The notes beneath the pieces were generated by a model. The model saw only the letters and a program-made list of their open reading frames with translations. It did not search any database and was not told the DNA's origin. From Pseudomonadota bacterium (GTDB lineage: Bacteria > Pseudomonadota > Gammaproteobacteria > Burkholderiales > Rhodocyclaceae): DNA of 61,227 nucleotides. Shown piece after piece: positions 4,779 through 53,346 of the stretch. The position numbers and the translations under genes are program-made. Each line of letters starts with the position of its first letter. Position 1 is the first letter of the stretch. The stretch is from the NCBI GenBank assembly GCA_018241725.1, contig JAFEDI010000022.1:1-61227 (forward strand), in the 5' to 3' direction.

Positions 4779-4821
4779 TTAGTAACCCCGGAGATAACCA
4801 GGTGAGCGTACTGTAGGTTAT

Positions 4822-34570: not shown

Positions 34571-34878
34571 ACTGCGGTCTCCGAGTTCATGGTGTAGTGC
34601 GTAGCCATTAGGATCGTGTTGAACGCTTCGGGGTCGAGTAGCTTCCGTGCTGTTTCCATGAATATAGTAGATTCGAGCGTAGGCGTCAAGACTTTTGTAG
34701 CCATGCTAATCGCTGTACGACGTACTGCAACGGCCTCCTGCGCCCGCCGACGCCAGTCCGACTCGTCGGGGTTATTGGCTAACTGTAGTTCGATCTTACG
34801 GATTTCGTCCTTCGCGGTACGAATCAAGGTGCGCAGTTCTTCCGGCGTCATGCGCTCGAAATGGCGTTCGAGTTTCAT
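34567..34878 (-). CDS. hypothetical helical protein, 103 aa
   Basis: This is a charged helical protein (MTPEELRTLIRTAKDEIRKI) with a second helix around RRAQEAVAVRRTAIS. It overlaps MKLA copy 1 upstream and the winged-helix gene downstream by 4 bp each. No recognised family. Confidence 0.6.
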   Translation of the reverse strand: MKLERHFERMTPEELRTLIRTAKDEIRKIELQLANNPDESDWRRRAQEAVAVRRTAISMATKVLTPTLESTIFMETARKLLDPEAFNTILMATHYTMNSETAV

Positions 34879-35063
34879 TCTAAAATCTCCACATAGCGGG
34901 GCAGCATACTCTTAGATGGTAATGTATAAACGCCTACTCCCGGTATAATAATTTCGTATGTTACCCAAGAGAGATCGAGGAAGTATTCCTCGAAATGACG
35001 TACTTGCACTACCGTACCTATTCTAGCCCCAAACAACGATCTCAGTAGAACGCCAAGTCTCAT
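34875..35063 (-). CDS. MKLA family small protein, copy 1
   Basis: I start it at ATG 35063 (MRLGVLLRS), with GAGGAG just upstream, not at 35078. The 62 residues hold ARIGTVVQV, then a long loop and IIPGVGVYTLPSKSMLP, ending RYVEILE. It is the most diverged copy: M-R-L-G replaces M-K-L-A. It follows the SF2 helicase stop with a one-base gap, and its stop overlaps the start of the next gene by 4 bases. Confidence 0.7.
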   Translation of the reverse strand: MRLGVLLRSLFGARIGTVVQVRHFEEYFLDLSWVTYEIIIPGVGVYTLPSKSMLPRYVEILE

Positions 35064-35064
35064 A

Positions 35065-36606
35065 TCACTCCTCTCCATGATGCCCCGTAAGTAAGTCTAG
35101 GATGGCTTGTTGCAGCCGGCCTTTTTCTTCCAAGGACTTATAGACCTTGCGTTCCACTGAAGTCGCAGATATACGTACGATAGTCATGTGGTTCTTTTGC
35201 CCGGGCCGTTTAATACGGGCGTTCGCCTGTTCGTAGGTTTCGTTCGACGCATAGGGGGCGTACCAGATTACGGTGCTCGCAACTTCCAGGTTTATCCCGT
35301 GGGACATCGCTCGCGGATGAGCCAAGATAATCTGTGCGTCTCGTCGGCTCTTCGTCCTGAAGTCGCTGAAAATCTTCGACCGTGCAGCGTCCGATACTGA
35401 CCCGTCTATCACGGATACGCCGTATCCGTCCGTCTTTAACTGAGATAATAGCACTCCGATTACGGAAGTAAAAGGCACGAACACGATTACTTTCTCATCA
35501 CAGGCGTCGATGATCTCCCGTATAGCGTCGTATCGTGGCTTCACATCAAGTAATGCGACCTGTTTATCTTCTCCGTATATAGCGCCACATGCCGCCTGAA
35601 TGAGTTTGTTGGCGAGGACTGCGGCGTTAACCGCCGTGATGTTTACCCCCTTAACCTCCGTGCAGGACTCATCCAGCAGTTGCTTATGATGCTTCCGCTG
35701 TTCGTCTGTGAGGTCCACTGTCAGGTCGATATAGGACACGGGCGGTAGGTCGATACAGTCCTCTGTTCGGAACCGCACGCACGGGCGCATGTATTTCGCT
35801 ACGATCTCCTCTGCGCCCTCCCGCGGCTCCCACTTAAACTGCGTGACTTTCCGCATCACCATGTCGCGAAATGTACCGTAGCTCACGCCGGTTGACTTCG
35901 GACGAATCAGTTCTATTTGGTGGTACGCATCCGTCGGTTCGTTCGGCGTAGGCGTCCCAGTCATTCCCCACACCCAAGTGGCGGTGTCCGTGAGCGTCTT
36001 TATTGCCTTATACGCTCCTGTCTTATTACGGGCTACCTGCGCTAGCTCGTCGATAACTACCATGTCAAACTGACCACGAAGTAGCTCCGCCCGGACACGA
36101 ACGCTTTCGGCATTGAGGATACATATCCTGGCCCGCTTCGCTAGTTTCTCCTTACAAACGCTTGGGGAGCCGCGGAGGATATCGTGCGACAAATGCGGGA
36201 AGTTAAGGAATATCGTTGATCCCCACACGTCTTTCAACGTCGATCGCGGGGAGATAATAAGCACGCGGTTTACCTGCTTCGCGCGAATCAGGTAGTCGAT
36301 GGCCCACAGGACAGCGAGGGTCTTGCCGGTGCCCATCCCGTTAAGCACGAACATACGCCGATATACAGTACACATATCGGCAGTAATTCGCTGATGCCGC
36401 ATCGGGGTATACGGGCCACACCAGTTATATCCGTAATGGATAGGACTCGGCGCTGCGATGTTCATGTTACGAAGGAGCCGCACTGCATCCAAGGTGTGCG
36501 GGATCGCAACTACGTCTACCCCCTCCACCTTCGCCCGCCTCGTGTTCGGAAGAGTCGCCAACTCCGGCTGATCCGGAATGATAATGTGCTGCTTAATTAC
36601 TTTCAT
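35065..36606 (-). CDS. SF2 / SNF2-type DNA helicase
   Basis: The 513-residue protein has the superfamily 2 motifs in order: YTPMRHQ near residue 66, Walker A NGMGTGKT with Lys95, VVIDELAQ with Asp186-Glu187, GMTGTPTPN near 214, and C-terminal QANARIKRPGQ. These define a helicase/translocase with two RecA-like lobes, of the kind phages use in replication, recombination or fork remodelling. The start lies inside the 3' end of MKLA copy 2, overlapping by 14 bp and thus translationally coupled. Confidence 0.88.
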   Translation of the reverse strand: MKVIKQHIIIPDQPELATLPNTRRAKVEGVDVVAIPHTLDAVRLLRNMNIAAPSPIHYGYNWCGPYTPMRHQRITADMCTVYRRMFVLNGMGTGKTLAVLWAIDYLIRAKQVNRVLIISPRSTLKDVWGSTIFLNFPHLSHDILRGSPSVCKEKLAKRARICILNAESVRVRAELLRGQFDMVVIDELAQVARNKTGAYKAIKTLTDTATWVWGMTGTPTPNEPTDAYHQIELIRPKSTGVSYGTFRDMVMRKVTQFKWEPREGAEEIVAKYMRPCVRFRTEDCIDLPPVSYIDLTVDLTDEQRKHHKQLLDESCTEVKGVNITAVNAAVLANKLIQAACGAIYGEDKQVALLDVKPRYDAIREIIDACDEKVIVFVPFTSVIGVLLSQLKTDGYGVSVIDGSVSDAARSKIFSDFRTKSRRDAQIILAHPRAMSHGINLEVASTVIWYAPYASNETYEQANARIKRPGQKNHMTIVRISATSVERKVYKSLEEKGRLQQAILDLLTGHHGEE

Positions 36607-36805
36607 CGAGAACTTCCAAGTTATAGATAGCTATGCCACGAGCGCGGGAATACCCAGGGATACTGCATAAATATGTATTAAAGAATGGAGTGACGTCGTG
36701 AACCTGAACTATAGTTCCTTTCGGCGCTATCTGCTGCCCGTACCCCATACGGACGTCAATTTCGTCCGATACGTTAATATCATTTCTAAGTCTCGCTAAT
36801 CTCAT
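36593..36805 (-). CDS. MKLA family small protein, copy 2
   Basis: The 70-residue product has MRLARLRNDINVSDE, then a long insertion before APKGTIVQV, and CSIPGYSRARG, ending LEVLDESN. The tail DESN is the out-of-frame reading of the helicase start (ATGAAAGTAATTAA). Copy 3 overlaps its start by 20 bases. Confidence 0.78.
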   Translation of the reverse strand: MRLARLRNDINVSDEIDVRMGYGQQIAPKGTIVQVHDVTPFFNTYLCSIPGYSRARGIAIYNLEVLDESN

Positions 36806-36962
36806 CTAAAAACTCCAAGTCCCCTTCATGTATGTTTATATACTGATTGCTCCCGGGGACACTACATACGTAGATACCCCGTATGAACCATTCGCACAAT
36901 ACCTGCACGGTGGTTCCTGCGGCAATCAGTCCTACTGGTGTTCGTAGTGTAGCTAGGCGCAT
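36786..36962 (-). CDS. MKLA family small protein, copy 3
   Basis: This 58-residue copy is shorter than the others: MRLATLRTPVGLIAAGTTVQ, then CSVPGSNQYINI and LEFLDEISET at the end. The start is only two bases after the T-run of terminator 36965-36992 and has no Shine-Dalgarno sequence, so how it is translated is unclear. It has the smallest spacer between the opening and the G-T-T-V-Q-V core and may show the minimal fold. Confidence 0.75.
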   Translation of the reverse strand: MRLATLRTPVGLIAAGTTVQVLCEWFIRGIYVCSVPGSNQYINIHEGDLEFLDEISET

Positions 36963-36964
36963 AG

Positions 36965-36992
36965 AAAAGAGGGCGCGTGTTACCGCGCCCTC
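36965..36992 (-). terminator. intrinsic terminator after the 37000-37599 gene
   Basis: GAGGGCGCG and CGCGCCCTC form a 9-bp stem with a 6-base loop, followed on the minus strand by TTTTCT. It lies 8 bp beyond the stop of the leftward gene at 37000-37599 and almost touches the start of MKLA copy 3. Genes downstream therefore need read-through or antitermination. Confidence 0.8.
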
Positions 36993-36999
36993 CCGGGTG

Positions 37000-37599
37000 T
37001 TACTCAGCGGCCGGGGCGCCGCCCTTCATGGCCAGGATGCGCTCTGCGACCTGCTTGACAGCCGGGTCCGCCAGCAGATGCGCGATGCGCAGCGCCGTGG
37101 TCTTGGCCTTGTCGCCGCTCGGGTCCACGATCGGCTTCAGGTCTTCCGCCACATCCGGCGCAGTCTTGCCGGTCGTCGCCGCGTACACAGCCAGATACGC
37201 CGTGATGAGGATCGACAGGTTCATGGTCGGCGCACGCGGCACACCGGCAGCGATCGGGCTGGCGTTCGTGAAGAACGCTTCGCCTTCCTCAGCCAGCCTC
37301 GCCACGACAGCGCGCATGTCCGAGACCACGGTGTCTTCGGCCTTGCTGACGATGGCGGACTTCAGGCCGAGCAGCGCCAGTCGAACCCACACCGGCTTGG
37401 GAAACTGCGCCAGCGTAAAGACCTCCTTATCGGCTTCGATCCACTTCCCCTCGGCGTCGCGGCGTCGTTCGGTCGCCGTCAGGGCGAAGGTATTGGTTGC
37501 GGTATCGACGGTATAGTCGAAACCGACGCGCTTCGGACGCGGCTTGACAACCTTCGGTTCGGCAGTGAGACCCAGGTCAATCGGTTCGGGAGAGTTCAT
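37000..37599 (-). CDS. hypothetical abundant-type protein, 199 aa
   Basis: The N-terminus is basic and proline-rich (AEPKVVKPRPKRVGFDYTV). A mixed alpha/beta middle follows with FPKPVWVRLALLGLKSAIVS, then Ala-rich helices and a C-terminal AERILAMKGGAPAAE. It is GC-rich compared with its neighbours and is closed by a strong terminator, suggesting high expression. I do not recognise the family. It overlaps the VRR-NUC gene by 23 bp. Confidence 0.65.
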   Translation of the reverse strand: MNSPEPIDLGLTAEPKVVKPRPKRVGFDYTVDTATNTFALTATERRRDAEGKWIEADKEVFTLAQFPKPVWVRLALLGLKSAIVSKAEDTVVSDMRAVVARLAEEGEAFFTNASPIAAGVPRAPTMNLSILITAYLAVYAATTGKTAPDVAEDLKPIVDPSGDKAKTTALRIAHLLADPAVKQVAERILAMKGGAPAAE

Positions 37600-37930
37600 C
37601 TCGCAAGCTCCTCAGAAATTTGGACAATTCGTGGATGTCAGATTCAGACCGGACAACAAGGTACTGACCTTGTGCTTCTACTATAGCGGCCTGTTGCCGA
37701 CGTTGCAAGGGGGTTAGTTCATTCTTTCCACCGGGGTCTTTCGTTTCGATGCCGATAAACCAGCCGTGCAGACAGAGAATGAAATCCGGAACCCCCCGTA
37801 CTCCGTAGCCCGTCTGCACCGGCATGTACCACCAGCACGACGGCCCAAGCGACTTCAGCACCCCCTTGACCCGCTCCTTGACATCCGCCTCGGAGCGCAC
37901 TATCGCGCTACCCCGGCTAGCTGCAGCCAT
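37577..37930 (-). CDS. VRR-NUC domain nuclease
   Basis: The 117-residue protein matches the compact VRR-NUC fold of PD-(D/E)XK nucleases: YGVRGVPDFILCLHG provides the Asp, GIETKDPGG gives Glu-x-Lys, and LTPLQRRQQAAIVEAQGQYL follows. Stand-alone phage VRR-NUC proteins act as structure-specific nucleases in recombination or replication. It overlaps the exonuclease gene by 31 bp. Confidence 0.82.
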   Translation of the reverse strand: MAAASRGSAIVRSEADVKERVKGVLKSLGPSCWWYMPVQTGYGVRGVPDFILCLHGWFIGIETKDPGGKNELTPLQRRQQAAIVEAQGQYLVVRSESDIHELSKFLRSLRDELSRTD

Positions 37931-38439: not shown

Positions 38440-38452
38440 GATTACCTCTCGA

Positions 38453-38701
38453 TCAGTCGTTAAGGAACCCACGGATGGCTTCTCTATGATCCATCATGTA
38501 GTTAAATGTTTCGATGATTACGAATTTCGTACCGTCTACCCCCTCTCCCCCCTCCGACAGCTTCTGCCGGAAGTACTCCGCCACCTGCGGTTTAATGGTA
38601 TCGACCATTATACGGATAAAATCCACTTGGGCTTCATACCGTTCGCAAGCGTCACGGTCGGCGAACTCAGTGCCGTCATCGGCGACGTATTTAGTTCTCA
38701 T
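38453..38701 (-). CDS. hypothetical protein, 82 aa
   Basis: MRTKYVADDGTEFADRDACE resembles the opening of small phage proteins that pair a short beta hairpin with a helix (YEAQVDFIRIMVDTIKPQV). The start overlaps the end of MKLA copy 4 by 11 bases in the same manner as family members overlap each other. Function unknown. Confidence 0.65.
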   Translation of the reverse strand: MRTKYVADDGTEFADRDACERYEAQVDFIRIMVDTIKPQVAEYFRQKLSEGGEGVDGTKFVIIETFNYMMDHREAIRGFLND

Positions 38702-38897
38702 CTAAGTAGTCCAGGCTGCCGCGTACAGCGTGAATCGTAGGGAGGGTTAGCACCAGTCCACCTGGGGCATCGAGTTGTACCCACTTGTTAAGACTATGTT
38801 CTGTTACTTGCACCGTAGTTCCGGCTGGTACAGTAACGTAGTGACGTAGATCGCAGTCCCACATTTCCAAATCGGTATTAAGCGTCGCTAGTCGCAT
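38691..38897 (-). CDS. MKLA family small protein, copy 4
   Basis: Start at ATG 38897. MRLATLNTDLEMWDCDLRHY is identical to the opening of copy 5. PAGTTVQVTEHSLNKWVQLD is nearly so, then APGGLVLTLP and LDYLDEN. The first 127 bases repeat 39093-39219 with 3 mismatches, so the two copies separated recently. The stop is within the next gene's start. Confidence 0.78.
   Translation of the reverse strand: MRLATLNTDLEMWDCDLRHYVTVPAGTTVQVTEHSLNKWVQLDAPGGLVLTLPTIHAVRGSLDYLDEN
38771..38897 (-). repeat. 127-bp near-identical direct repeat (partner 39093-39219)
   Basis: The 5' parts of MKLA copies 4 and 5 match over 127 bp with three differences, all close together near the distal end. The offset between repeats is 322 bp. 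This is a recent duplication that can still recombine. Confidence 0.9.
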
Positions 38898-39219
38898 ATA
38901 GCGGCCCTCCATCTAAAAAATCAAAGTGGACACCTCTATAATAGTCAGCCGGAAAGCTAAGCATTAACCCGCCCGGAGCGCGGACTTCCATCCACTTTTC
39001 GTTAGGTTTTGTTACGTGTACCACAGTTTCGATTGGCACGGAAACGTACTCCTTGCGCTCTCCATTCCACATGTCTAGCCCGCCGGGGGCACCGAGTTGT
39101 ACCCACCTCTTGAGACTATGTTCTGTTACTTGCACCGTAGTTCCGGCTGGTACAGTAACGTAGTGACGTAGATCGCAGTCCCACATTTCCAAATCGGTAT
39201 TAAGCGTCGCTAGTCGCAT
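38878..39219 (-). CDS. MKLA family protein, copy 5 (fused double copy, 113 aa)
   Basis: Residues 1-48 equal copy 4 through PAGTTVQVTEHSLKRWVQLG and APGGL. At that point a second unit begins without its own start (DMWNGERKEYVSVPIETVVH), continues KWMEVRAPGGLMLSFPAD and ends ATSDA. The junction aligns DMWNGERKEYVSV with EMWDCDLRHYVTV, so it arose by unequal recombination between two copies. In the second unit I-E-T-V-V-H-V replaces the usual G-T-x-V-Q-V, suggesting relaxed constraint. Confidence 0.75.
   Translation of the reverse strand: MRLATLNTDLEMWDCDLRHYVTVPAGTTVQVTEHSLKRWVQLGAPGGLDMWNGERKEYVSVPIETVVHVTKPNEKWMEVRAPGGLMLSFPADYYRGVHFDFLDGGPLYATSDA
39093..39219 (-). repeat. 127-bp near-identical direct repeat (partner 38771-38897)
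   Basis: This is the second member of the pair described at 38771-38897. It ends exactly at the start codon of copy 5 and continues a little into the A-P-G-G coding part, where the two genes diverge. Confidence 0.9.
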
Positions 39220-39427
39220 CGGGTGAACCCTCGTCTAAGTATTCCAAGTACTTAACGTATACGCCACTGGTCTTCGTACTGATTAGTAACCCACCGGGGG
39301 CGTGAATCGTTAGCCATTGCTCGCCCATGTTCTCTACTTGTACCATCGTACCGGCCTGTACTAAGACGCACTGACTGATGTTCGGGTCCCACATAGTCAA
39401 CGGAGCCCTAAGTCTCGCCAATCTCAT
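39200..39427 (-). CDS. MKLA family small protein, copy 6
   Basis: The product has 75 residues: MRLARLRAPLTMWDPNISQ, then QAGTMVQVENMGEQWLTIH, APGGLLIST and EYLDEGSPDATSDA. A good ribosome binding site GAGGTGAGG precedes it, following terminator 39446-39465, so it probably opens a new translation block. The tail ATSDA is the shifted reading of copy 5's start. Confidence 0.78.
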   Translation of the reverse strand: MRLARLRAPLTMWDPNISQCVLVQAGTMVQVENMGEQWLTIHAPGGLLISTKTSGVYVKYLEYLDEGSPDATSDA

Positions 39428-39445
39428 GCCTCACCTCGAAAGATT

Positions 39446-39465
39446 CGGGCGGTTCCCTCCGCCCG
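39446..39465 (-). terminator. hairpin upstream of MKLA copy 6
   Basis: CGGGCGG and CCGCCCG form a 7-bp stem with a 6-base loop, followed on the minus strand by AATCTTT. It lies about 250 bp after the stop of copy 7 and ends the non-coding island 39466-39712. Confidence 0.6.
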
Positions 39466-39712
39466 GTAACGTCTAAGGGCCGTCGTTTCTGTGCATACGG
39501 TACTTAGGCTTGCTGAGGACGAGGCGCATGCGTACGTCTCGCTCTCAGTTCGCAGTGTCAGATCACCATCGGGAAGAAGGGCCTAACGGCTCTGACTGCG
39601 GGGGATGCCTGCGCTCTAATCCCGCGGGACGCTCCTTTCGGATGGGCTTGTCGGCACCGCTGCCCGGATCGCGGCAATGCACATGGCCGACTCACGTATG
39701 CTTAACCCTCAG
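39466..39712. other. island without an assigned gene
   Basis: Nearly 250 bp interrupt the otherwise overlapping MKLA array. On the minus strand only short frames exist (22 residues from MCIAAIRA, 18 residues from MRLVLSKP). On the plus strand an ORF from ATG 39528 with GAGGACGAGG upstream runs to 39749, 73 residues with six Cys (SDCGGCLRSNPAG, QCTWPTHVC). I looked for a tRNA and found none. An ncRNA ending at terminator 39446-39465, or a small antisense Cys-rich protein, are both possible. Confidence 0.4.
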
Positions 39713-39904
39713 TCACTCTACCACCTCAACTACGTCGTGTATTCTATAATCGCCTATCAGCAAAATCAACCCTCCGGGGGCGTGCAACATATACTCCCCG
39801 TTCCGCTGCTCCTCCACCTGAATTACTGCCCCCGCACGTACGGCAACCCATTCGCCGTAGCGATCCACGAAGTATGTGTCCTTCTTAAGCGTTGCTAGTT
39901 TCAT
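39713..39904 (-). CDS. MKLA family small protein, copy 7
   Basis: This 63-residue copy reads MKLATLKKDTYFVDRYGEW, RAGAVIQVEEQRNGEYML, HAPGGLILLIGDY and ends VVEVVE. It is the only intact copy whose stop is not overlapped by another gene, and it lacks the D-D-E-T-S tail, which supports the view that the tail is a by-product of overlap. Confidence 0.8.
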   Translation of the reverse strand: MKLATLKKDTYFVDRYGEWVAVRAGAVIQVEEQRNGEYMLHAPGGLILLIGDYRIHDVVEVVE

Positions 39905-40094
39905 CGCCTAGGAATTCCAAATACTCGTTAACCCGCTCCTCGAACACTGATTCCATCAAGTTACCCGGGGCGTAAATAAGCACCGACCCCCGTCTAGGCT
40001 CCGCCACTTGCACGACCGCACCGGCTTTTACCGTCGTGATCGTTAGCCCCGGAGTTATCATGCAGAGGTTTCGTTTAAGCCTTGCTAGTTTCAT
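39885..40094 (-). CDS. MKLA family small protein, copy 8
   Basis: The product is 69 residues: MKLARLKRNLCMITPGLT, KAGAVVQVAEPRRGSVLIY, APGNLMESVFEERVNEYLEF and L-G-D-E-T-S-N-A. It overlaps copies 7 and 9 by 20 bases each. The final residues are encoded by the same bases as M-K-L-A of copy 7. Confidence 0.8.
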   Translation of the reverse strand: MKLARLKRNLCMITPGLTITTVKAGAVVQVAEPRRGSVLIYAPGNLMESVFEERVNEYLEFLGDETSNA

Positions 40095-40516: not shown

Positions 40517-40715
40517 CGTCATCAGCAAGGAACTCAACCGTGTCATCTAGTTCGTGCTTGTGTACGAGGGAAATTAACCCTCCGGGGGCCAACAGGCGAT
40601 AACCTCCTGACCAGTGAAAAAGCGTGGTTTCCTTAATTACCTGTACGACAGTACCCTTCGGTAATATCCCTCCCCTAAAGAAATATAAATCCTTTTTAAG
40701 CGTAGCTAACCTCAT
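40497..40715 (-). CDS. MKLA family small protein, copy 11
   Basis: The start is ATG 40715. The 72 residues read MRLATLKKDLYFFRGGILPK, GTVVQVIKETTLFHWSGGY, LAPGGLISLVHKHELDD and TVEFLADDDETGDT. The C-terminal parts of copies 10 and 11 (LADETGDT and LADDDETGDT) are nearly identical, pointing to tandem duplication. Confidence 0.8.
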   Translation of the reverse strand: MRLATLKKDLYFFRGGILPKGTVVQVIKETTLFHWSGGYRLLAPGGLISLVHKHELDDTVEFLADDDETGDT

Positions 40716-40924
40716 TCCAGCCACTCCACTTCCTCGCTAAGTTCGCCCAAATCTACCCACCTGCGCCCCGCGCTCCCGGGGGCGATCAGGATCGCCATGT
40801 CGGGGTCATCCCAAGGTTCTGCTCCTACTACCTGTACGACCGTCCCCGCGCGGATAAACGCTTCATCGTGTGACGGGGACTCGCGGAAGAACCACTGTGA
40901 CGTACGCATGCGGGCGAGCATCAT
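40712..40924 (-). CDS. MKLA family small protein, copy 12
   Basis: The start at 40924 (MMLARMRTSQWFF) overlaps the stop of the nuclease gene as ATGA; ATG 40921 is equally possible. The core is RAGTVVQVVGAEPW, then LIAPGSAGRRWVDLGE and VEWLE. It is the promoter-proximal end of the first array and is more acidic than its relatives. Confidence 0.75.
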   Translation of the reverse strand: MMLARMRTSQWFFRESPSHDEAFIRAGTVVQVVGAEPWDDPDMAILIAPGSAGRRWVDLGELSEEVEWLE

Positions 40925-41628
40925 CTCTTCGGTCTCCAGTTCGGGCATTGCTTAGCCGGGCACCAGCCGTTACATAGGCCGGATCGCTTCATCGGGAACG
41001 CTTCCGCTGAGTGCTGCAGCGATGCGTTGTCAATCTCGGTCAGCCGTACATCCCACGGATGGTTCGGCGCACGGCTTTCCTCGGTGAATCGTACTTCTCC
41101 TGAGTCCTCATCGCTTTCGCGGGGAGTGACTACCCCCTGATTATACCATATGAACCGGTATTGTACAGCCTGCAACGTCGGGAATGTATGAGATAGCAAC
41201 CATGCGTAGAAGTAGGCTTGCTCAGGGGAATGCCGTACTTTCCCTGACTTCCAGTCATAGAGCTTAGCGTAGACAGGGGTTGCCAAGTTGTCAAGCAAGA
41301 TCAGGTCGGCTTTCCCTACGGCCCACGCGAGCCGCGGGGGCAGCACGACGTGGCTCTGACCGATCGCCAGGTCATGCTCAATCAGCGGCACCCACCGACC
41401 GGAGTCCACCGCCTGCTGGACGACCCGCACGTAACCGCCTACGGCGGCGTCCAGCGCGGCCGGGAGCGGGGCCTGCCCCCGTAGGGTGCGCTCAATGTGC
41501 GCGTGCTCCTCGACGCCGCGCAGGGCCTCCGGCCCCATCTCGGACCGACATGACCGCTCCACGCGCTGATGGAAAAACTGCCGAGGACAGGTGGTGTACT
41601 GCTTCCAGGAAGTGTACGAGTGGGCCAT
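40921..41628 (-). CDS. PD-(D/E)XK nuclease, RecB/Cas4-like
   Basis: I start it at ATG 41628, overlapping the polymerase stop (TGATG). The 235 residues begin SYTSWKQYTTCPRQFFHQ, a RecB-type opening with Cys. WAVGKADLILLDN supplies the Asp and KLYDWKSGK the Asp-x-Lys of the PD-(D/E)XK site. The C-terminus has LCNGWCPAKQCPNW, giving three Cys that with the N-terminal Cys could hold an iron-sulfur cluster as in Cas4/AddB nucleases. A role in recombination or DNA end processing next to the polymerase is likely. Confidence 0.8.
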   Translation of the reverse strand: MAHSYTSWKQYTTCPRQFFHQRVERSCRSEMGPEALRGVEEHAHIERTLRGQAPLPAALDAAVGGYVRVVQQAVDSGRWVPLIEHDLAIGQSHVVLPPRLAWAVGKADLILLDNLATPVYAKLYDWKSGKVRHSPEQAYFYAWLLSHTFPTLQAVQYRFIWYNQGVVTPRESDEDSGEVRFTEESRAPNHPWDVRLTEIDNASLQHSAEAFPMKRSGLCNGWCPAKQCPNWRPKR

Positions 41629-43610
41629 CACTTTGCCTCTGCGTAGTTAGCGGCGATTTTGCCTTCGGCCCCTAATGGTATATCACGATACCAGTCTCTT
41701 CCAGTGGACATTATCGTTAATGTCCTGTCGAACACTGCCTGCGCTTGATCCTTATGGGCGACCTGGATGAGTTCGTCATGGACCGTCAGCGCGATCCGGG
41801 ATACGCCACGAAGCTCCCGGTCCACGAGCAACATCGCGTCGGTCATAATGATCCGACTGAGCGCCTGTGTAATATTCTCCGCCAGCTTCCCCCCGTAAAT
41901 ACCTAGCCATGACTTCCCGTTCCAGTAAGCATATGAGCGTCCTTCCTGTCGCAGTTTCGTGTACGCGAGCCGTAGCCCGTTCGGCAAGCGGATCGCGTCT
42001 TTCTCCGTCCGCAGCGGACCGAAGTCAGCCTCTACGCCATTAAGCATATACTTCAGCATCAGGTCGCAGGTAGACCAGTACTTTACGATGTTCGGGCTCG
42101 ACGCCCGCCAAGCCGTAACTAAGTGGTCCGCAACCGCGCAATGGGTTTGTACCGCCTCCGCGTCTACAGGGTAGAAAAACCCACTGCGAGCAATATGATC
42201 TCGTTGCCGGCGTTGCTTATACGCATCGGCAGAAAACGCCCCTACATCTACGCCTAGTCGGTCGGCGTCCACGGGGGTGAACCGGATTGACGGTAAGCCC
42301 ATTAACCCCTTAAAAACTTCGCTCGCAAACTTCGGCGACCCCATGTTATACCCAAGGCCGAGCACAATTACCTTACCGACATTACGTTCCGGCATCCCCT
42401 TAACGATCTTCGTCCCGTAGATATTCGAGGCCGTGTATGCGTACACGCATTCACCTGCACGAAATACCGCGAGGACGCTTTCTTCGTTGGCGAGCCAAGC
42501 GAGAACGCGGGCTTCGATAGAAGAAAAGTCCACGACGACCAGATCATGATCTGGCGGGGGGATGACGGCCGAACGCAACCCCTTACCGCGAGGGAGGTTC
42601 TGCATATTTACGTCGTCGGTGCCGGAGAATCGGAACGTGTTTTCCGCCCCGCAGTAGGCAAGCGGGATAGGCAGCAGTGGGCGCCCCGTAAACGCCACGC
42701 TGCGCTGCGCGATACCGATGAAACGCTGCGCCCGCGCCTGTCGCAAGGATGATTGGTTGCCTAACTTAGCCTCTACGAGCGCAGCGACTCGCGGGTCATC
42801 GTGGGTTCGGAGCGCGAGTAGTTCCTGATCGGTCTTTGCGAACGCATACGTCAGCTTCTCCGGGTCTGACGGAGACGGCTTCCTCGGAGGGGATACGCCG
42901 AGCGCAGTGAGCAACGCAGCGAACTTCGGAGCACTACGCAAGTCCGCTAACGTCGTGCCGAGGTCTGAGAGGGTAGTGGTTCGTTCGTGCTCCGCCGTAT
43001 CGTAAATATCTTGGCATAAGCCAGCGGCTACCTCCATCACAGGCTTGGTAAACATCTCAAGCGTCAAGTGCTGCACCAAGAACTCTTTCAGCGGTATGCG
43101 CGGCTTCAGGCGGTTGTATATTTCTCGGCACAGCCACGTATCTTGGTTATTATATTCTGCGAACGCATCACGCATGGCGGGACTCATGTCCTCCACATGC
43201 ACGCCGTTCATGAATCTGTCTAGCACGTCGCCTTTAGGCGGTAGGCCGTAATACTCCGCGAGCGTTTTCAAGCTAGCCTTTTTATGCCCCGCCGCCCGTG
43301 CCATTCCTAGTGTATCGACCATCAACTTCGGATGGATACCTAGCCGCCAAGCGAGAATTGCGAAATCAAACATCCCGTTGTGGGAGGCGAACGGATGAGA
43401 CGGGGCGGCGGAGCGGAGGAACGCAATGATACCCGGCCATTCAGGGGTGTCTGCGAAGAAACACCGCGGGGGCCGGTCATCTACTGCGACCGATACGGAC
43501 ACAAAGGCAAATCGAGGATCGCGGATATAAGATTCCAGGGTCACTCCTTTTGAACGGAGGGAATACTTAGTCTTACTGTTGTAATGAGTTTCCCAGTCGA
43601 GGAAGATCAC
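41628..43610 (-). CDS. DNA polymerase, family A, with 3'-5' exonuclease
   Basis: This is a 660-residue replicative polymerase. The exonuclease domain has MIFLDWETHY (Asp5, Glu7), SHNGMFDFAIL (Asn78, Asp82) and EYNNQDTW (Tyr153, Asp157). The polymerase domain has motif A LVVVDFSSIEARVLAW with Asp361, motif B-like RNVGKVIVLGLGYNMG and motif C TVHDELIQ near 612. In motif A, Ser-Ser replaces the common Tyr/Ser-Gln, as in several phage enzymes. It would copy phage DNA with the primase-helicase. Confidence 0.92.
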   Translation of the reverse strand: MIFLDWETHYNSKTKYSLRSKGVTLESYIRDPRFAFVSVSVAVDDRPPRCFFADTPEWPGIIAFLRSAAPSHPFASHNGMFDFAILAWRLGIHPKLMVDTLGMARAAGHKKASLKTLAEYYGLPPKGDVLDRFMNGVHVEDMSPAMRDAFAEYNNQDTWLCREIYNRLKPRIPLKEFLVQHLTLEMFTKPVMEVAAGLCQDIYDTAEHERTTTLSDLGTTLADLRSAPKFAALLTALGVSPPRKPSPSDPEKLTYAFAKTDQELLALRTHDDPRVAALVEAKLGNQSSLRQARAQRFIGIAQRSVAFTGRPLLPIPLAYCGAENTFRFSGTDDVNMQNLPRGKGLRSAVIPPPDHDLVVVDFSSIEARVLAWLANEESVLAVFRAGECVYAYTASNIYGTKIVKGMPERNVGKVIVLGLGYNMGSPKFASEVFKGLMGLPSIRFTPVDADRLGVDVGAFSADAYKQRRQRDHIARSGFFYPVDAEAVQTHCAVADHLVTAWRASSPNIVKYWSTCDLMLKYMLNGVEADFGPLRTEKDAIRLPNGLRLAYTKLRQEGRSYAYWNGKSWLGIYGGKLAENITQALSRIIMTDAMLLVDRELRGVSRIALTVHDELIQVAHKDQAQAVFDRTLTIMSTGRDWYRDIPLGAEGKIAANYAEAK

Positions 43611-43646
43611 GTTACTCCTCCAAAATAGATAGCACTGTTACGCCCA

Positions 43647-44006
43647 TCACTGATCTCTCCACTCGCCGTGAATAATAATCGTAGCTGTCCAGCGAAACGA
43701 GCGAAGCGGGACGAACGCTACGCTAGTGTCAGTGACAATCCGCATACACAACTTGCCTCCTACCTTAACCCCCCGCGTAATCACTGCCGTCAACACCGTA
43801 CCCGGAAGACTATGAATGTTCCCGCCTTGCATTCTGCAGAACAGCACTGGCTTATTCAGTTTAATCATGGCGGAACAGGCTTTCCGCGCCGCCCTATATT
43901 CATACACCATTATACCCCTACGCCACCAGCGGGTGTAGCCGGGGCTTCTATTGTAATAGCAGAAATACTTGGTAGAAATCATTCGATCATACTTACGATC
44001 CTTCAC
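43647..44006 (-). CDS. hypothetical basic protein, 119 aa, sibling of 43993-44307
   Basis: A GTG start at 44006 is preceded by GGAG. The second half (AMIKLNKPVLFCRMQGGN, LPGTVLTAVITRGVKVGG, VAFVPLRSFRW and GEWRDQ) aligns with the neighbouring upstream gene. An internal ATG at 43868 would give just this half, so the true start is uncertain. The G-T-V-L core and a following strand give a distant likeness to the MKLA family. Confidence 0.55.
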   Translation of the reverse strand: MKDRKYDRMISTKYFCYYNRSPGYTRWWRRGIMVYEYRAARKACSAMIKLNKPVLFCRMQGGNIHSLPGTVLTAVITRGVKVGGKLCMRIVTDTSVAFVPLRSFRWTATIIIHGEWRDQ

Positions 44007-44307
44007 GTCTCCATCCCCCCTTAGTGATTACCCGTATCCGCCGGCGTAATTGACGGTGCCTAAAAGCGTAGGTGTCGCCGTGATTTTCTACTATTGTATA
44101 CGACCCCCACGACGTTTTCGCTCCTACACGGTGCCTACTTCGTATCATCTTTACGTTCAGTACCGTGTTCTTCGGCAAGTCGAACAACGGTCGTTTCAAG
44201 ACTACCATGGCGTTGCAGGTATAACACACCGTATTATCATAATCGTGCCATCGCAGGATAGATACGTGCGACCGCCGTAGCACCTTATCGAGGTATTTAT
44301 TTTTCAT
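43993..44307 (-). CDS. hypothetical basic protein, 104 aa, sibling of 43647-44006
   Basis: YTCNAMVVLKRPLFDLPKN, TVLNVKMIRSRHRVGAK, YAFRHRQLRRR and TKGGWRREGS match the neighbour position by position. The product is strongly basic, so nucleic acid binding is possible. The N-terminal 35 residues are unique. It overlaps the dihydrofolate reductase gene by 11 bp and its sibling by 14 bp. Confidence 0.6.
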   Translation of the reverse strand: MKNKYLDKVLRRSHVSILRWHDYDNTVCYTCNAMVVLKRPLFDLPKNTVLNVKMIRSRHRVGAKTSWGSYTIVENHGDTYAFRHRQLRRRIRVITKGGWRREGS

Positions 44308-44755
44308 ATATCCTCCAAGTAAGATCCCCCGAATGAGTTTCGTCTATTACCCGCCATACCGACCAGTCGATGGGCGGGAATCTCGCATCCCCTTCCACGT
44401 CATACCCCACGGTAGTTACATACATCCTATCACAGAGGCCGACAGATTGCGCATATATGTTCGCCCCTCCGATAATCATAATCTCCGTCGCGTCCGAGAA
44501 AGCATCCAGCGCGGAAGTAAGCGACGAGAACGCCCACGCGCCCGGAGTAATTAAGTTTGGGTTACTGGTGATGACGATGTTATCCCGGTTAGGCAGCCGT
44601 CCTGGCAGTGACTCCCACGTCTTACGCCCCATGATAACTGGCTTACCGACGGTACGCCTTTTGAAATACCGCAAGTCCTCCGGTTCATACCACGGAATAC
44701 GACCGCCGTTACCGATGACCCCGTTCTTACTCATCGCTACGATTAACGAAATCAT
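44297..44755 (-). CDS. folA: dihydrofolate reductase
   Basis: This is a full-length 152-residue enzyme. MISLIVAMSKNGVIGNGG, RIPWYEPEDLRYFKRRT with active-site Asp27, VGKPVIMGRKTWESLPGR and MIIGGANIYAQSV are the family signatures. It reduces dihydrofolate to tetrahydrofolate for nucleotide synthesis. No thymidylate synthase is recognisable next to it, so it probably supports the host pathway under high demand, or works with an unidentified enzyme. Confidence 0.95.
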   Translation of the reverse strand: MISLIVAMSKNGVIGNGGRIPWYEPEDLRYFKRRTVGKPVIMGRKTWESLPGRLPNRDNIVITSNPNLITPGAWAFSSLTSALDAFSDATEIMIIGGANIYAQSVGLCDRMYVTTVGYDVEGDARFPPIDWSVWRVIDETHSGDLTWRIYEK

Positions 44756-45225
44756 ACCCTTTCTCGCAACAGCCGAAACAACGTAGTAGGGTTAGGCACC
44801 CATTGCTTATGCACTGCGCCGCCTAGTGTAGACGGAACTACGGTGTACCGCAACGTGTGGTAGTACGTCACCATGAACTTAGGATAGTACGAATCGAACA
44901 GCATATGCTGCTTGATGTACGGTCGCTGTAGGTTAAACCATTCGTCGCGCCGCATAATCTGCACTATCCGGTCCAGCACCTCTTCCGGGTACGTGAGCGA
45001 CGCTACCATGCCGATCAGGTCGTCGTCCTTGTAGCCCTTGACGTAAGGGATCGGGGTAGACGTGTCGTTCATCCGGTCGTACAGCGGAGCGAGGAGATAC
45101 GGGCGCTCGCAGTCCCACTGGCCGAGGGGCGCCCCATTCCGGAAAAACCCATCTATGGCCTTCGCCCGCTGCGTTAACGCAACTGCGTCGGGATGGGCAC
45201 GGATGAAGAAGTATAGGAGTTTCAT
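44752..45225 (-). CDS. hypothetical protein, 157 aa
   Basis: The sequence starts MKLLYFFIRAHPDAVALTQR and includes YLLAPLYDRMNDTSTPIPY and WFNLQRPYIKQHMLFDSYY. It is rich in Tyr, Leu and Pro. I compared it mentally with thymidylate synthase because of its position and saw no match. It overlaps dihydrofolate reductase and MKLA copy 13 by 4 bp each. Confidence 0.65.
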   Translation of the reverse strand: MKLLYFFIRAHPDAVALTQRAKAIDGFFRNGAPLGQWDCERPYLLAPLYDRMNDTSTPIPYVKGYKDDDLIGMVASLTYPEEVLDRIVQIMRRDEWFNLQRPYIKQHMLFDSYYPKFMVTYYHTLRYTVVPSTLGGAVHKQWVPNPTTLFRLLRERV

Positions 45226-45419
45226 AGTGGCTCAAAATACTCACGGAACAGGTAATAATCCAGGAGGGCGTACCCAGGTATTCCGGGGAAATACACGTCG
45301 TACCCACCATAGGTATCCTCATACTGAACTATCGTACCTATTGGCGGGCCGGTAATGACCGTGGGCGGGCAAACTAGCAGCCACTCATCGCCGCTACGTA
45401 TCGCCCTAGCTAGTTTCAT
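45222..45419 (-). CDS. MKLA family small protein, copy 13 (second subfamily)
   Basis: The product is 65 residues: MKLARAIRSGDEWLLVCPP, PPIGTIVQYEDTYGGYDVY, FPGIPGYALLDYY and FREYFEPL. It belongs to the subfamily of the 45-48 kb array, in which P-P-x-G-T-x-V-Q-Y-E replaces A-G-T-x-V-Q-V, and Y-F-P-G replaces A-P-G-G. Confidence 0.8.
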   Translation of the reverse strand: MKLARAIRSGDEWLLVCPPTVITGPPIGTIVQYEDTYGGYDVYFPGIPGYALLDYYLFREYFEPL

Positions 45420-45621
45420 CGTCTAAGTCCTCGAAATACTCCCAGAATAGATTCCAAGTTATAGGGGCGTGCCCAAGTATTCCGGGAAAGTACATATCGC
45501 ACCCCACATTAATAATCGGCTCATACTGCACGATCGTACCCACCGGGGGCCTATCAACTATCGAGTATGGCTCGGTAATTGCCCAAGCGCCCCCGGTACG
45601 AATCACCCTAGCTAACCTCAT
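45406..45621 (-). CDS. MKLA family small protein, copy 14
   Basis: It has 71 residues: MRLARVIRTGGAWAITEPY, PPVGTIVQYEPIINVGCD, MYFPGILGHAPITWNLFW and EYFEDLDDETS. The tail DDETS is the out-of-frame reading of copy 13's start. Its own start overlaps the VWA gene stop as ATGA. Confidence 0.8.
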   Translation of the reverse strand: MRLARVIRTGGAWAITEPYSIVDRPPVGTIVQYEPIINVGCDMYFPGILGHAPITWNLFWEYFEDLDDETS

Positions 45622-46775
45622 TCCGGACCCACCTCAATAACAGACCCGTAAACAGGCGAGTAGTCTTCGTTCTTCGCCCCCTTCGGCACCATCCATACGA
45701 TCGGATACTCGGCGTTCCGCGCGCTACTCGGGAGAGGCGCACCCCAGTCAGTAAGAACGATAACCACAGAGGGCGGTTCTTCGCCGTTCGCCCACTCAAA
45801 CACCGGTCCAAAGTTAGTACCGCCGCGGCCAGGGACACTTTCTAAGCGATGAATATCACTGGCATTGATATTGTCATCGACTCGCTGAATACCGTAGTCG
45901 AAGAACAACACGGTCAGCCGCTCGACCGAGTACGCGCCGAGCACATGCGGAACCTGACTGACGAACCGGGCCAGTAAGTTACTGCTAACGCTCCCGCTAG
46001 TGTCGATCGCAATCACTACGTGGGCAATGGCGTCAGACTTACCGCGGCCGGGGAGGTACATATCCTGCGCGACGTAACGCTTATTCGGGCGCCGCCATGA
46101 CGTGTCCGACGGAACTACGGCGGACAGATAGCGCGAGAGCATGTCCCGGTAATCCGCCTCCGGAGCGAGGTCGCTACGGACGCGCTCTTCCATCCCGCCA
46201 GACCGTTGCCCTGCCGCACGCTTCGCCTCCGCGGCCTGGATCGCCGCTTGCTGCCATGCCGGGTGTGCAGCTTCGGTTGCTGCGTCCCCCTCAATCACGT
46301 CGAGGTCAACTTCCATACTGACGTACGCAGGATCACGGCTGATGATCTCGTACACCTCGTACCACGACATATTGCGGAACTGCTCGTCGATGAAGTATTC
46401 CCCGGGGGGTACAGCGAAGCCCTCGTCCTTCGCAATGAGATTCACTACGAAATCCATCGCGATATTAGCGAGGTGACGGTTCCGCCCACCGAGTACGCCG
46501 GGCAGGCAGTGCCCGAACACGCAATGCAGGATTTCGTGGAAAAAGGCAAACCCGAGGTCGCCTTTTTTCTCTAACACCGGGGTGTTCACCCACATGCGAC
46601 GCCCATCCGTCGCGGCGAGCGGGATAGTCAAATCCTCAATGACTTCCAGCCGGGCAATGAGTGTCGTCATCCACGGGTATGCGTGCGTGACCCGGCTACG
46701 CACCAGTTCCAACGGGGTATACGGCCACGGGGCCTTACCACGAGTGATCTGGATCAAGTCTTCAGGAGTTAGCAT
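45618..46775 (-). CDS. VWA-domain protein with N-terminal zincin-like metallopeptidase
   Basis: The 385-residue protein has a metallopeptidase-type motif FHEILHCVFGH at residues 79-89 and a C-terminal von Willebrand A domain with MIDAS VIAIDTSGSVS (Asp258). RGGTNFGPVFEW and VIVLTDWGAP follow at the later MIDAS positions. This is the architecture of DUF2201/CobT-like proteins that work with MoxR/CobS-type AAA+ ATPases. The partner ATPase is encoded at 47822-48961. Together they may remodel a protein or insert a metal; the substrate is unknown. Confidence 0.82.
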   Translation of the reverse strand: MLTPEDLIQITRGKAPWPYTPLELVRSRVTHAYPWMTTLIARLEVIEDLTIPLAATDGRRMWVNTPVLEKKGDLGFAFFHEILHCVFGHCLPGVLGGRNRHLANIAMDFVVNLIAKDEGFAVPPGEYFIDEQFRNMSWYEVYEIISRDPAYVSMEVDLDVIEGDAATEAAHPAWQQAAIQAAEAKRAAGQRSGGMEERVRSDLAPEADYRDMLSRYLSAVVPSDTSWRRPNKRYVAQDMYLPGRGKSDAIAHVVIAIDTSGSVSSNLLARFVSQVPHVLGAYSVERLTVLFFDYGIQRVDDNINASDIHRLESVPGRGGTNFGPVFEWANGEEPPSVVIVLTDWGAPLPSSARNAEYPIVWMVPKGAKNEDYSPVYGSVIEVGPE

Positions 46776-46971
46776 CGGTTAAATCCTCGAAATATAAGTT
46801 GAACGCTTTCATATTCATACTACTACCTACTACGCACCCGGGGAAGTATACATCTACCCGCTTCCCGTCGTATTCGTACTGCACGATCGTACCGATGGGC
46901 GGGCTTATCGCGCCACCGTCATTCAGCCTCCACGGGCAGTTATCCCACTTGACTATCCTCGCCAGTTTCAT
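46762..46971 (-). CDS. MKLA family small protein, copy 15
   Basis: The start is ATG 46971. The 69 residues read MKLARIVKWDNCPWRLND, PPIGTIVQYEYDGKRVDVY, FPGCVVGSSMNMKAFN and YFEDLTDANS. Its tail TDANS is the shifted reading of the VWA protein start (ATGCTAACTCC), so the VWA gene is coupled to it. The opening is nearly the same as copy 16's. Confidence 0.8.
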   Translation of the reverse strand: MKLARIVKWDNCPWRLNDGGAISPPIGTIVQYEYDGKRVDVYFPGCVVGSSMNMKAFNLYFEDLTDANS

Positions 46972-47171
46972 TCTAGCCACTCGAAGTATTCGGTAAACAC
47001 CGCGGAGTTAACGGTACTACATACATCGTACCCCGGAAAGTACACACGCACACCTACCTCCGAAATACCTCCATCTACTTGTACGACCGTACCTATTGGT
47101 GGGTTAACCTCAGTTCCATCGTCTAACCACCAGTTAAAACTGTCCCACTTAACTATCCTAGCTAATCTCAT
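46968..47171 (-). CDS. MKLA family small protein, copy 16
   Basis: It has 67 residues: MRLARIVKWDSFNWWLDD, PPIGTVVQVDGGISEVGVR, VYFPGYDVCSTVNSAVF and EYFEWLE. Its start is inside the 3' end of the frameshifted copy 17. With copy 15 it shares LARIVKWD, indicating a duplication younger than the rest of the subfamily. Confidence 0.8.
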   Translation of the reverse strand: MRLARIVKWDSFNWWLDDGTEVNPPIGTVVQVDGGISEVGVRVYFPGYDVCSTVNSAVFTEYFEWLE

Positions 47172-47356
47172 CGAAGAAATCCTCGAAATATCGTTTGCTC
47201 ATGCGCGCAAACCCGTTAAACCCCGGTACATAGATTTCTACACTGCATGCCCGTTTCCATTCCTTGTATGTAATTTTTGTACCTACTGGGATATACACCC
47301 CTCGGCTGGTAAATAAACTGCGCGGTACATACACATACTGCGGATTTTAGTTTCAT
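47158..47356 (-). pseudogene. MKLA family small protein, copy 17, frameshifted
   Basis: An ATG-AAA-CTA start overlaps the stop of copy 18 just as in intact neighbours, but the frame then stops after 46 residues. In another frame a normal body follows: SRGVYIPVGTKITYKEW, VEIYVPGFNGFARMSK and RYFEDFFDEIS, ending in the overlap with copy 16. Removing one base in the A4 run right after the start (47345-47348) would restore a 65-residue member. A +1 ribosomal shift or a sequencing error would give the same picture. Confidence 0.75.
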
Positions 47357-47568
47357 AGTTCCCCGAAATACCTATTAAACGCCATCATACTAACCGTCAT
47401 GTGACTGGCGTACCCGGGGAAATACACTCGACGCCAGTAGTCATCGCATTTACCCCTCGGTAGTTCTTCATACTGCACGGTCGTACCCACTGGCGGGTTA
47501 ACTGTATCCCCGTTGTCGAGAATCCACGGGATTGACTGGCGCTTTATTACCTTAGCCAGGTTCATCAT
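47353..47568 (-). CDS. MKLA family small protein, copy 18
   Basis: It starts MMNLAKVIKRQSIPWILD (ATG 47568, or 47565) and continues NPPVGTTVQYEELPRGK, RRVYFPGYASHMTVSMMAFN and YFGEL, 71 residues. The second residue differs from the family norm. The stop overlaps the start of copy 17 by 4 bases. Confidence 0.78.
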   Translation of the reverse strand: MMNLAKVIKRQSIPWILDNGDTVNPPVGTTVQYEELPRGKCDDYWRRVYFPGYASHMTVSMMAFNRYFGEL

Positions 47569-47777
47569 AAGAACTCGAAATATCTATTAAACGCACTAAC
47601 TTCCAGTTCTTTTACCCCTACGCAGCCGGGGAAGTGTACGACATATGCAACAGTCCCACTAAACTTATATGTCTTACGCTCCACCTGAACGACTGTGCCT
47701 ATATCCGGGTTAATCTCCGTATCGTCCGATAGATACCACGGAGTACCGTCTCGGTGGATAACCCTAGCCAGCTTCAT
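47565..47777 (-). CDS. MKLA family small protein, copy 19
   Basis: The start is ATG 47777, directly after GAGGAGGGGGG; the longer upstream frame to 47957 is antisense-like and lacks a ribosome binding site. The 70 residues read MKLARVIHRDGTPWYLSDD, NPDIGTVVQVERKTYKFSG, VVHFPGCVGVKELEV and NRYFEFL. It opens the second array and has the strongest ribosome binding site of the family. Confidence 0.8.
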   Translation of the reverse strand: MKLARVIHRDGTPWYLSDDTEINPDIGTVVQVERKTYKFSGTVAYVVHFPGCVGVKELEVSAFNRYFEFL

Positions 47778-52892: not shown

Positions 52893-52893
52893 G

Positions 52894-53274: not shown

Positions 53275-53304
53275 TGCTTAGTCCTCTGCGTTCGTTGTGG
53301 GTGT

Positions 53305-53333
53305 AGATTACTCAGCGGTTGCCGGTTTGTCAA
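53305..53333 (-). promoter_or_regulatory. sigma-70 promoter, copy 1 of 3
   Basis: On the minus strand TTGACA (53333-53328), a 17-bp spacer and TAATCT (53310-53305) lie about 30 bp before the start codon of the acidic gene. The surrounding stretch of about 70 bp is nearly identical in copies 2 and 3. Confidence 0.85.
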
Positions 53334-53346
53334 GGGGGGATGGCTA

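What the first reader, a model, noticed from the sequence alone, without database searches (positions are those of the whole stretch)
34875..47777. Nineteen-copy expansion of one undescribed small-protein family inside the replication region
Seen: 19 leftward genes (58-80 codons, plus one fused 113-residue copy) mostly begin M-K/R-L-A-x-L/I/V, then after a variable stretch carry G-T/A-x-V-Q-V or V-Q-Y-E, another variable stretch, an A-P-G-G or Y-F-P-G turn, and end near V/F-E-Y-F/L-E-x-L. They form two arrays (34.9-40.9 and 45.2-47.8 kb) of two subfamilies and lie between helicase, nuclease, polymerase, DHFR and MoxR/VWA genes. Inference: a small SH3-like beta barrel with a fixed frame and hypervariable surface loops, diversified by duplication. 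Such arrays could be an arsenal against varied host targets, or adaptors for the replication enzymes they are coupled to. I know of no described system of this form.
Basis: partly seen in the sequence, partly recalled or inferred. Interest (0 to 1): 0.88.

Follow-up and report, generated by a model that had tools for sequence, protein, structure and literature searches.

The report
Nineteen-copy phage SH3-like protein arrays
A virus of bacteria carries nineteen diverged copies of one unknown small protein, slotted between its DNA-copying genes, probably as a set of binders for different partners, and a related virus has done the same with an unrelated small protein.

Summary
A ~61-kb phage contig holds 19 homologous small genes (20 domains) in its replication operon. 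Leave-one-out profiles recover 18 of 18 single-domain copies (E <= 1.1e-4; best non-family ORF 0.17). They sit at five sites, not two. No significant match was found in PHROGs, Pfam, NCBIfam or PDB sequences; limited scans of phage, IMG/VR and genome collections found no copy elsewhere. The copies are under purifying selection; loops change faster than core, but positive selection is not shown. Seventeen of 19 overlap the next start codon by 1-20 nt, five of these before non-family genes: they look like plug-in, translation-coupled cassettes. DNA and tree show local tandem duplication and one fusion. New here: syntenic Rhizobium phage RHph_TM3_14A carries 12 copies of an unrelated orphan family in the same operon; 16 of 18 relatives surveyed have no credible family of three or more. 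Best mechanism (inferred): a repertoire of small protein-binding modules against host or defence targets, made by duplication. Replication adaptors and near-neutral coupling cassettes are live rivals. Verdict: new variant of a known kind.

The parts
47565..47777 (-). family copy 1 (site 1, between MoxR and VWA), 70 aa
   Evidence: SD-like AGGAGG upstream
47353..47565 (-). family copy 2 (site 1), 70 aa
47158..47334 (-). family copy 3 (site 1), 58 aa from GTG; conserved ATG start at 47356 lies in another frame
46968..47171 (-). family copy 4 (site 1), 67 aa; modelled as SH3-like barrel
46762..46971 (-). family copy 5 (site 1), 69 aa; overlaps start of VWA gene by 14 nt
45406..45621 (-). family copy 6 (site 2, after VWA), 71 aa
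45222..45419 (-). family copy 7 (site 2), 65 aa; overlaps start of 44752 by 4 nt
40712..40921 (-). family copy 8 (site 3, after PDDEXK nuclease), 69 aa
40497..40715 (-). family copy 9 (site 3), 72 aa
40274..40516 (-). family copy 10 (site 3), 80 aa
40075..40293 (-). family copy 11 (site 3), 72 aa; modelled as SH3-like barrel
39885..40094 (-). family copy 12 (site 3), 69 aa
39713..39904 (-). family copy 13 (site 3), 63 aa; followed by a 285-nt stretch without a recognisable family gene
39200..39427 (-). family copy 14 (site 3), 75 aa
38878..39219 (-). family copy 15 (site 3), 113 aa, fusion of two copies
38691..38897 (-). family copy 16 (site 3), 68 aa; first 107 nt identical to copy 15
36786..36962 (-). 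family copy 17 (site 4, before SNF2 helicase), 58 aa
36593..36805 (-). family copy 18 (site 4), 70 aa; overlaps start of SNF2 gene by 14 nt
34875..35063 (-). family copy 19 (site 5, after SNF2 helicase), 62 aa; overlaps start of 34567 by 4 nt
47822..48961 (-). MoxR-type AAA ATPase of the operon
   Evidence: phrog_1297
45618..46775 (-). metallopeptidase-VWA protein (DUF2201)
   Evidence: phrog_1314
41628..43610 (-). DNA polymerase I-like polymerase
   Evidence: by similarity to annotated phage polymerases
40921..41631 (-). PD-(D/E)XK nuclease
35065..36606 (-). SNF2-type helicase

Best explanation
This is one orphan family of SH3-like barrel proteins of mostly 58-80 residues, multiplied within the replication operon of a ~61-kb tailed phage of a betaproteobacterium. 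Shown: 19 homologous genes at five places in a conserved operon; the fold, by confident prediction, for one member of each subfamily; purifying selection; start codons embedded in the end of the gene before. Inferred: each copy is a translation-coupled cassette. Recombination at the near-identical 20-nt start/stop junctions, or by microhomology, can add, remove or fuse whole copies without breaking translation of the replication genes downstream. Inferred function: small protein-binding modules made along with the replication enzymes. The framework (b1, GTxVQV, PG turn, parts of the last strand) is kept, while the RT-like and n-Src-like segments differ in length and sequence, so that different copies bind different partners, most likely host or defence proteins.
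For: 19 copies, found only in this contig of the host assembly. SH3-like barrel, pLDDT 92.3 and 93.5; SH3 domains fill most rows of the PDB lists shown. Mean entropy 1.23 bits in b1 and 0.89 in the GTxVQV strand against 2.68 and 2.65 in the two loop segments, whose lengths run 10-24 and 11-22 residues (18 copies). Purifying selection: dN/dS 0.03/0.16, 0.28/0.74 and 0.40/1.26 in the three least saturated of 10 pairs; differences by codon position 211/181/342 over the 10 pairs, which share members. pN in variable segments 0.27-0.54 against 0.11-0.19 in core, 6 pairs. Junctions: 17 of 19 overlap the next start by 1-20 nt, 5 of the 17 before non-family genes. The C-terminal Glu codon, which lies where a Shine-Dalgarno for the next gene would be, is GAG 12 and GAA 3 against 32 and 37 elsewhere in the same 18 genes (Fisher p 0.023, copies not independent). 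Recent duplicate identical from the ATG for 107 nt and 0 nt upstream. Neighbours group in the tree (UFBoot 82-95 for the site groups). 0 of 34 IMG/VR records with a related polymerase match the profile (one search is the positive control). An unrelated 12-copy family in the same operon of RHph_TM3_14A. 14 of 19 copies have pI below 6, which speaks for protein rather than DNA partners, though the overlap-encoded tails add acidic residues.
Confidence: 0.45

Rival explanations
1. Adaptors or subunits of the replication and MoxR-VWA machinery: each copy binds the enzyme encoded next to it.
For: Copies are interleaved with MoxR, VWA, nuclease and SNF2 genes and overlap several of their starts. The YFPG subfamily sits only around VWA. 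In print: some jumbo-phage DNA polymerases have an upstream gene for a small SH3-fold protein, raised as a possible subunit (PMC7824862, passage seen).
Against: Relatives with the same enzymes in the same order lack the family (0 of 34 records; many are fragments), so the enzymes do not need it as such; nine copies at one site are hard to explain by one adaptor per enzyme; RHph uses an unrelated family at similar places.
Confidence: 0.25
2. Near-neutral plug-in cassettes: duplicates persist because each carries a start and a stop that keep translation of the operon intact; most copies do little.
For: Junction architecture and 20-nt near-identical overlaps; GAG preference at the C-terminal Glu codon, as expected of a built-in Shine-Dalgarno; a recent duplicate starting exactly at the ATG and a fusion copy; one copy with a displaced start frame; loops near relaxed in 40274/40497 (pN 0.27, pS 0.35).
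Against: 18 of 19 copies have the whole domain in one frame from the conserved start, with core pN/pS of 0.19-0.53 in 6 pairs; confident folds for both members tested; 4.1 kb of 61 kb is a large load for a phage.
Confidence: 0.2
3. Dosage amplification of one useful protein, as T4 multiplies tifA under selection by toxIN.
For: Tandem duplication here; T4 precedent PMC9391042 (passages seen).
Against: Of the 10 best pairs, all but one are 60% identical or less in protein, so this is not recent dosage.
Confidence: 0.07

Closest known systems
Lineage-specific expansion of a zinc-ribbon protein (~35 copies) in Bacillus phage G (PMC7824862, passage seen)
   Same: one small-protein family multiplied many-fold in a single phage, role unsettled
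   Different: zinc ribbon, not an SH3-like barrel; jumbo phage; the passage seen says nothing of interleaving with a replication operon
T4 segmental amplification of tifA against toxIN (PMC9391042, passages seen) and SegB-driven amplification (PMC13096335, abstract and section list seen)
   Same: tandem multiplication of small phage genes by recombination
   Different: tandem repeats raised under laboratory selection for more expression; here diverged copies kept as separate proteins
Small SH3-fold protein encoded upstream of some jumbo-phage DNA polymerases (PMC7824862, passage seen)
   Same: small SH3-fold protein beside a phage replicative polymerase
   Different: described there as an upstream gene, not an array; no sequence comparison was made here
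T4 MotB, predicted N-terminal KOW (SH3-like) domain (PMC7827196, passages seen)
   Same: early phage protein with a predicted SH3-like domain
   Different: two domains, binds DNA; most copies here are acidic single domains
AMLLG small-protein family of Rhizobium phage RHph_TM3_14A (this work)
   Same: 12 diverged copies, orphan, in the same syntenic operon
   Different: no profile relation to the window family (hhalign probability 0.06%); fold not predicted

Membership tests
SH3-like barrel fold | small barrel of five or six strands with a short helical turn before the last strand | tested here: met
Pfam SH3_3 (PF08239) bacterial SH3 | profile score above the curated cut-off (27 bits) | tested here: not met
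   1 of 19 members at E 0.059, 14 bits
KOW-type SH3-like domain (as MotB N-terminus) | match to a KOW profile or structure | tested here: inconclusive
   no KOW family among the Pfam matches at E <= 0.1; not among the 50 entries shown by each fold search, which excludes nothing
Phage G type zinc-ribbon expansion | zinc-binding cysteines in each copy | tested here: not met
   no conserved cysteine column in the alignment of 19
Phage G type zinc-ribbon expansion | many copies of one family in one phage genome | tested here: met
   19 copies; none found elsewhere within the reach
T4 tifA-type segmental amplification | near-identical tandem copies | tested here: not met
   one pair 95% identical over 143 nt, the other pairs far diverged
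Jumbo-phage polymerase-associated SH3 protein | sequence or structural homology to that protein | not tested
   no comparison was made with the protein named in the review

The most novel reading that the evidence does not exclude
The replication operon of this phage group is a repertoire locus. Translation-coupled slots between core genes take up whichever small-protein family the lineage carries and multiply it into a set of diverged binders aimed at varied host or defence targets: an SH3-like barrel here, an unrelated AMLLG family in Rhizobium phages.
Probability: 0.25. Interest if true: 0.85.

Novelty: new variant of a known kind. Interest (0 to 1): 0.6.

Why it matters
If the copies bind different partners, one phage offers about nineteen natural variants of a tiny scaffold and a ready panel for finding new host or defence targets. 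If they are coupling cassettes, it shows how phages grow gene arrays inside an essential operon without breaking it. The second, unrelated expansion in the Rhizobium phages makes the question testable across lineages.

Tried and rejected
Relatives of the family. PHROGs, NCBIfam and Pfam on all 19 members: nothing significant (best E 0.097, 0.016 and 0.041). PDB sequences by profile: best E 0.17. INPHARED tblastn with 2 of 19 members: 5 records, best E 0.9, and 30 records of which the 15 shown have E 3; no relative seen. IMG/VR: a peptide-pattern scan with subfamily 2 matched 37 stretches, 0 confirmed; four DNA-pattern scans gave 2, 3, 1 and 0 loci. GTDB contigs gave 28 loci. None of these 34 loci passes the profile (best E 0.076). 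Sensitivity is limited: the first pattern matches 6 of 19 copies in the window itself. Host-family genomes: only the own genome of 297 rings. Pieces of the surveyed relatives: best E 0.074 over 57 pieces.

DNA-binding reading: charges are mixed, mostly acidic; not pursued. Relation of 43647 and 43993 to the family: hhalign probability 8%, not supported. A lost copy in the 285-nt gap 39428-39712: no profile match. Overall GAG:GAA use shows no bias (46:45 in the family, 141:141 in neighbours); I first took this against a built-in Shine-Dalgarno, but a count at the C-terminal Glu alone (12:3) speaks mildly for one. The G306 three-member cluster looks low-complexity by eye and was discounted. StenR_269 does not show this operon in its annotation and was not counted among the 18 relatives, nor searched for paralogue families; in the earlier, similar test it gave none of three or more.

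Literature: full-text searches of the open PMC library, showed no description of such SH3-like arrays. Only listings were seen; two searches returned nothing, one search listed 15 of 25. Most subscription papers are not held.
Full report
What the window is. The contig is 61,227 bases with a 125-bp direct repeat at its ends, so most likely a circular or terminally redundant phage genome of about 61.1 kb within a 5.93-Mb bacterial assembly. Terminase, a connector protein and the major head protein lie on the right-going side. The left-going side holds a DUF927 primase-helicase-like protein, SNF2 helicase, nucleases, a DNA polymerase I-like polymerase, DHFR, a metallopeptidase-VWA protein and a MoxR ATPase. 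An 870-base 16S fragment of the host is 93.8% identical to a copy on a Niveibacterium microcysteis plasmid record, the best of 523 records, so I take the host to be a betaproteobacterium. No INPHARED record is close in DNA to the first 25 kb of the window; the nearest polymerases listed there are about 33% identical.

The observation. Nineteen leftward genes of 58-113 codons share one domain. A profile of all 19 rings at 20 places in this contig and nowhere else in the host assembly. In a leave-one-out test 18 of 18 single-domain copies were recovered among 933 window ORFs at E 4e-20 to 1.1e-4, while the best other ORF was 0.17 and the best reversed ORF 0.088. The copies occupy five slots in the operon: five between MoxR and VWA, two after VWA, nine between the PDDEXK nuclease and gene 38453, two before SNF2 and one after it.

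Sequence evolution. Entropy is lowest in the first strand, GTxVQV and the PG turn, and highest in the RT-like and n-Src-like segments and the strand after PG; the two segment lengths vary 10-24 and 11-22 residues (18 copies, fused copy left out). Differences fall most often on third codon positions (211/181/342 over the 10 best pairs, which share members), and dN is below dS in the three least saturated pairs. In six pairs pN is 0.27-0.54 in variable segments and 0.11-0.19 in core, with pS 0.30-0.91. So the family is coding and constrained in its frame, with fast loops. There is no evidence for positive selection, and saturation limits power. The family's GC3 is 0.53 against 0.50-0.82 in 18 other operon genes.

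Architecture of the junctions. Seventeen of 19 genes overlap the next start by 1, 4, 11, 14 or 20 nt, taking starts as. Exceptions are 39713 (285 nt without a recognisable family gene follows) and 47353, whose overlapping ATG opens a frame other than that of the next domain. In seven junctions the overlap is 20 nt: the DNA that reads MKLAxLK or MRLAxL in the downstream gene reads DETxxx-stop or the like in the upstream one, and these 20-mers are 95-100% identical between many copies. Five of the 17 downstream genes are not family members (VWA, 44752, 38453, SNF2, 34567). The C-terminal Glu codon sits where the ribosome-binding site of the next gene would be; it is GAG in 12 and GAA in 3 copies, against 32 and 37 for the other Glu codons of the same 18 genes (Fisher p 0.023, copies not independent). 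I infer that each copy acts as a cassette that can be inserted or removed without breaking coupling. A caution: overlapping starts also occur between other genes of this operon.

How the copies arose. In the tree, members at one site tend to group (36593 with 36786, UFBoot 82; 45222 with 45406, 91; 38691, 38878 and 39200, 89; all of array 2, 88), which points to local tandem duplication after seeding of sites; deep nodes are weak. Copies 38691 and 38878 are identical for 107 nt from the ATG and not at all upstream of it. The 113-aa copy joins the first 48 residues of such a copy to a second one lacking its start; the join resembles the start region of a copy over a dozen bases, a weak hint of microhomology (inference).

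Relatives. Fifty IMG/VR loci encode a relative of the polymerase. Where they extend far enough they nearly all keep one order on one strand: MoxR, VWA, polymerase, PDDEXK, VRR nuclease, SNF2, gene 32480, primase; in 14 the VRR match precedes the polymerase, and in L037 the primase match is on the other strand. Some are compact at the window's slots: in L003 the matched stretches of PDDEXK, VRR and SNF2 lie within 70 nt of each other. None of the 34 whole records searched (of the 50) matches the family profile; most are fragments. Eight further loci found through SNF2 also lack it.

A second expansion. Rhizobium phage RHph_TM3_14A has the syntenic operon and its own orphan small-protein family, marked by A-x-AMLLG and a later D-x-x-T-x-x-x stretch. 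Twelve copies pass the same test in clusters of 7 and 5 that weaker matches link; two of the twelve are not annotated as genes. Ten lie before MoxR, one after the polymerase and one between VRR and SNF2; one more gene ends in a fragment of the motif. tblastn with one member at E <= 0.01 finds only the four RHph_TM records; PHROGs and Pfam give nothing significant for the 6 members tested; it has no profile relation to the window family. Survey by one test: 18 relatives were examined, namely 15 IMG/VR records of at least 45 kb, 45.5 of 60.9 kb of RHph, and 34-35-kb parts of Rollin and KPP25. RHph has the 12 copies, G304 has 3, G306 has 3 low-complexity ORFs that I discount, and 15 have no family of three or more. 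The same test scores 14 in the window, where the profile finds 19. So the window's array is extreme, but not alone in kind.

Mechanism and ranking. Position among replication genes, a tiny scaffold with variable loops, mostly acidic single domains (14 of 19 with pI below 6) and restriction to one lineage fit a set of binders against host or defence proteins best (0.45 for the whole statement). Adaptors for replication enzymes (0.25) are weakened by absence from relatives with the same enzymes. Near-neutral cassettes (0.2) fit the junctions and the one displaced frame, but not the constraint. Dosage amplification (0.07) does not fit the divergence. All four are inference; none was tested. The mended counts did not move these odds.

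Known kinds. A review of jumbo phages reports about 35 copies of a zinc-ribbon in Bacillus phage G and a small SH3-fold protein upstream of some phage polymerases (PMC7824862, passages). T4 multiplies tifA in tandem under selection (PMC9391042, passages), and SegB promotes such amplification (PMC13096335, abstract). T4 MotB is predicted to have a KOW-type SH3-like domain (PMC7827196, passages). I therefore file the find as a new variant of a known kind: a lineage-specific small-protein expansion, with a new family, an interleaved coupled architecture and a parallel, unrelated case in a related phage.

Noticed in passing
L107 (MN988472.1 19645-45537): 2006-5382, 14730-14954, 17863-18081: Rhizobium phage RHph_TM3_14A has its own 12-copy orphan small-protein family (AMLLG motif) in the syntenic operon; two copies are unannotated and gene 17123 ends in a motif fragment.
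   Followed up: partly
L022 2247-2696, 17994-18290, 18290-18691: Three paralogous small proteins (L(L/M)GF...FYTC...VFV...DPxxL) in the same operon of another relative; possibly akin to the AMLLG family, not tested.
   Followed up: partly
window 43647-44006 and 43993-44307: Two adjacent genes just downstream of DHFR, before the polymerase, look like diverged paralogues of each other (32% identity) with an LPxxTVL core reminiscent of, but not shown related to, the array family.
   Followed up: partly
window 47158-47356: Copy with the conserved overlapping start in a different frame from the rest of the domain: decay, an assembly error or a GTG start.
   Followed up: partly
window 57417-57965 and 58057-58605: Two adjacent rightward 182-aa genes may be tandem duplicates, as ORFs antisense to them match each other; the first matches phrog_5162, unknown function.
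   Followed up: no
window 52276-53461: Rightward ORFs at 52276-52413 and 53297-53461 match each other, so the DNA there holds a repeated stretch; the leftward ORF 52293-52892 matches phrog_4433, unknown function.
   Followed up: no
window 27481-28290: PAPS-reductase-family gene (PF01507, E 2.5e-25) directly downstream of the DUF927 primase-like gene.
   Followed up: no
MN988472.1 42239-45322: Annotated 'putative integrase' matches the window's DUF927 primase-like protein (22% identity over 82%) and lies in the same operon position; the name looks doubtful.
   Followed up: no
MoxR-VWA gap in L006, L023, L032, L033, L034, L036, L038, L051: By eye, 8 of the 11 loci printed carry a similar protein of 284-457 aa between MoxR and VWA, where the window has five small family genes; whether the window has it elsewhere was not tested.
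   Followed up: partly
window 1-125 and 61103-61227: 125-bp terminal direct repeat, sign of a circular or terminally redundant genome.
   Followed up: yes
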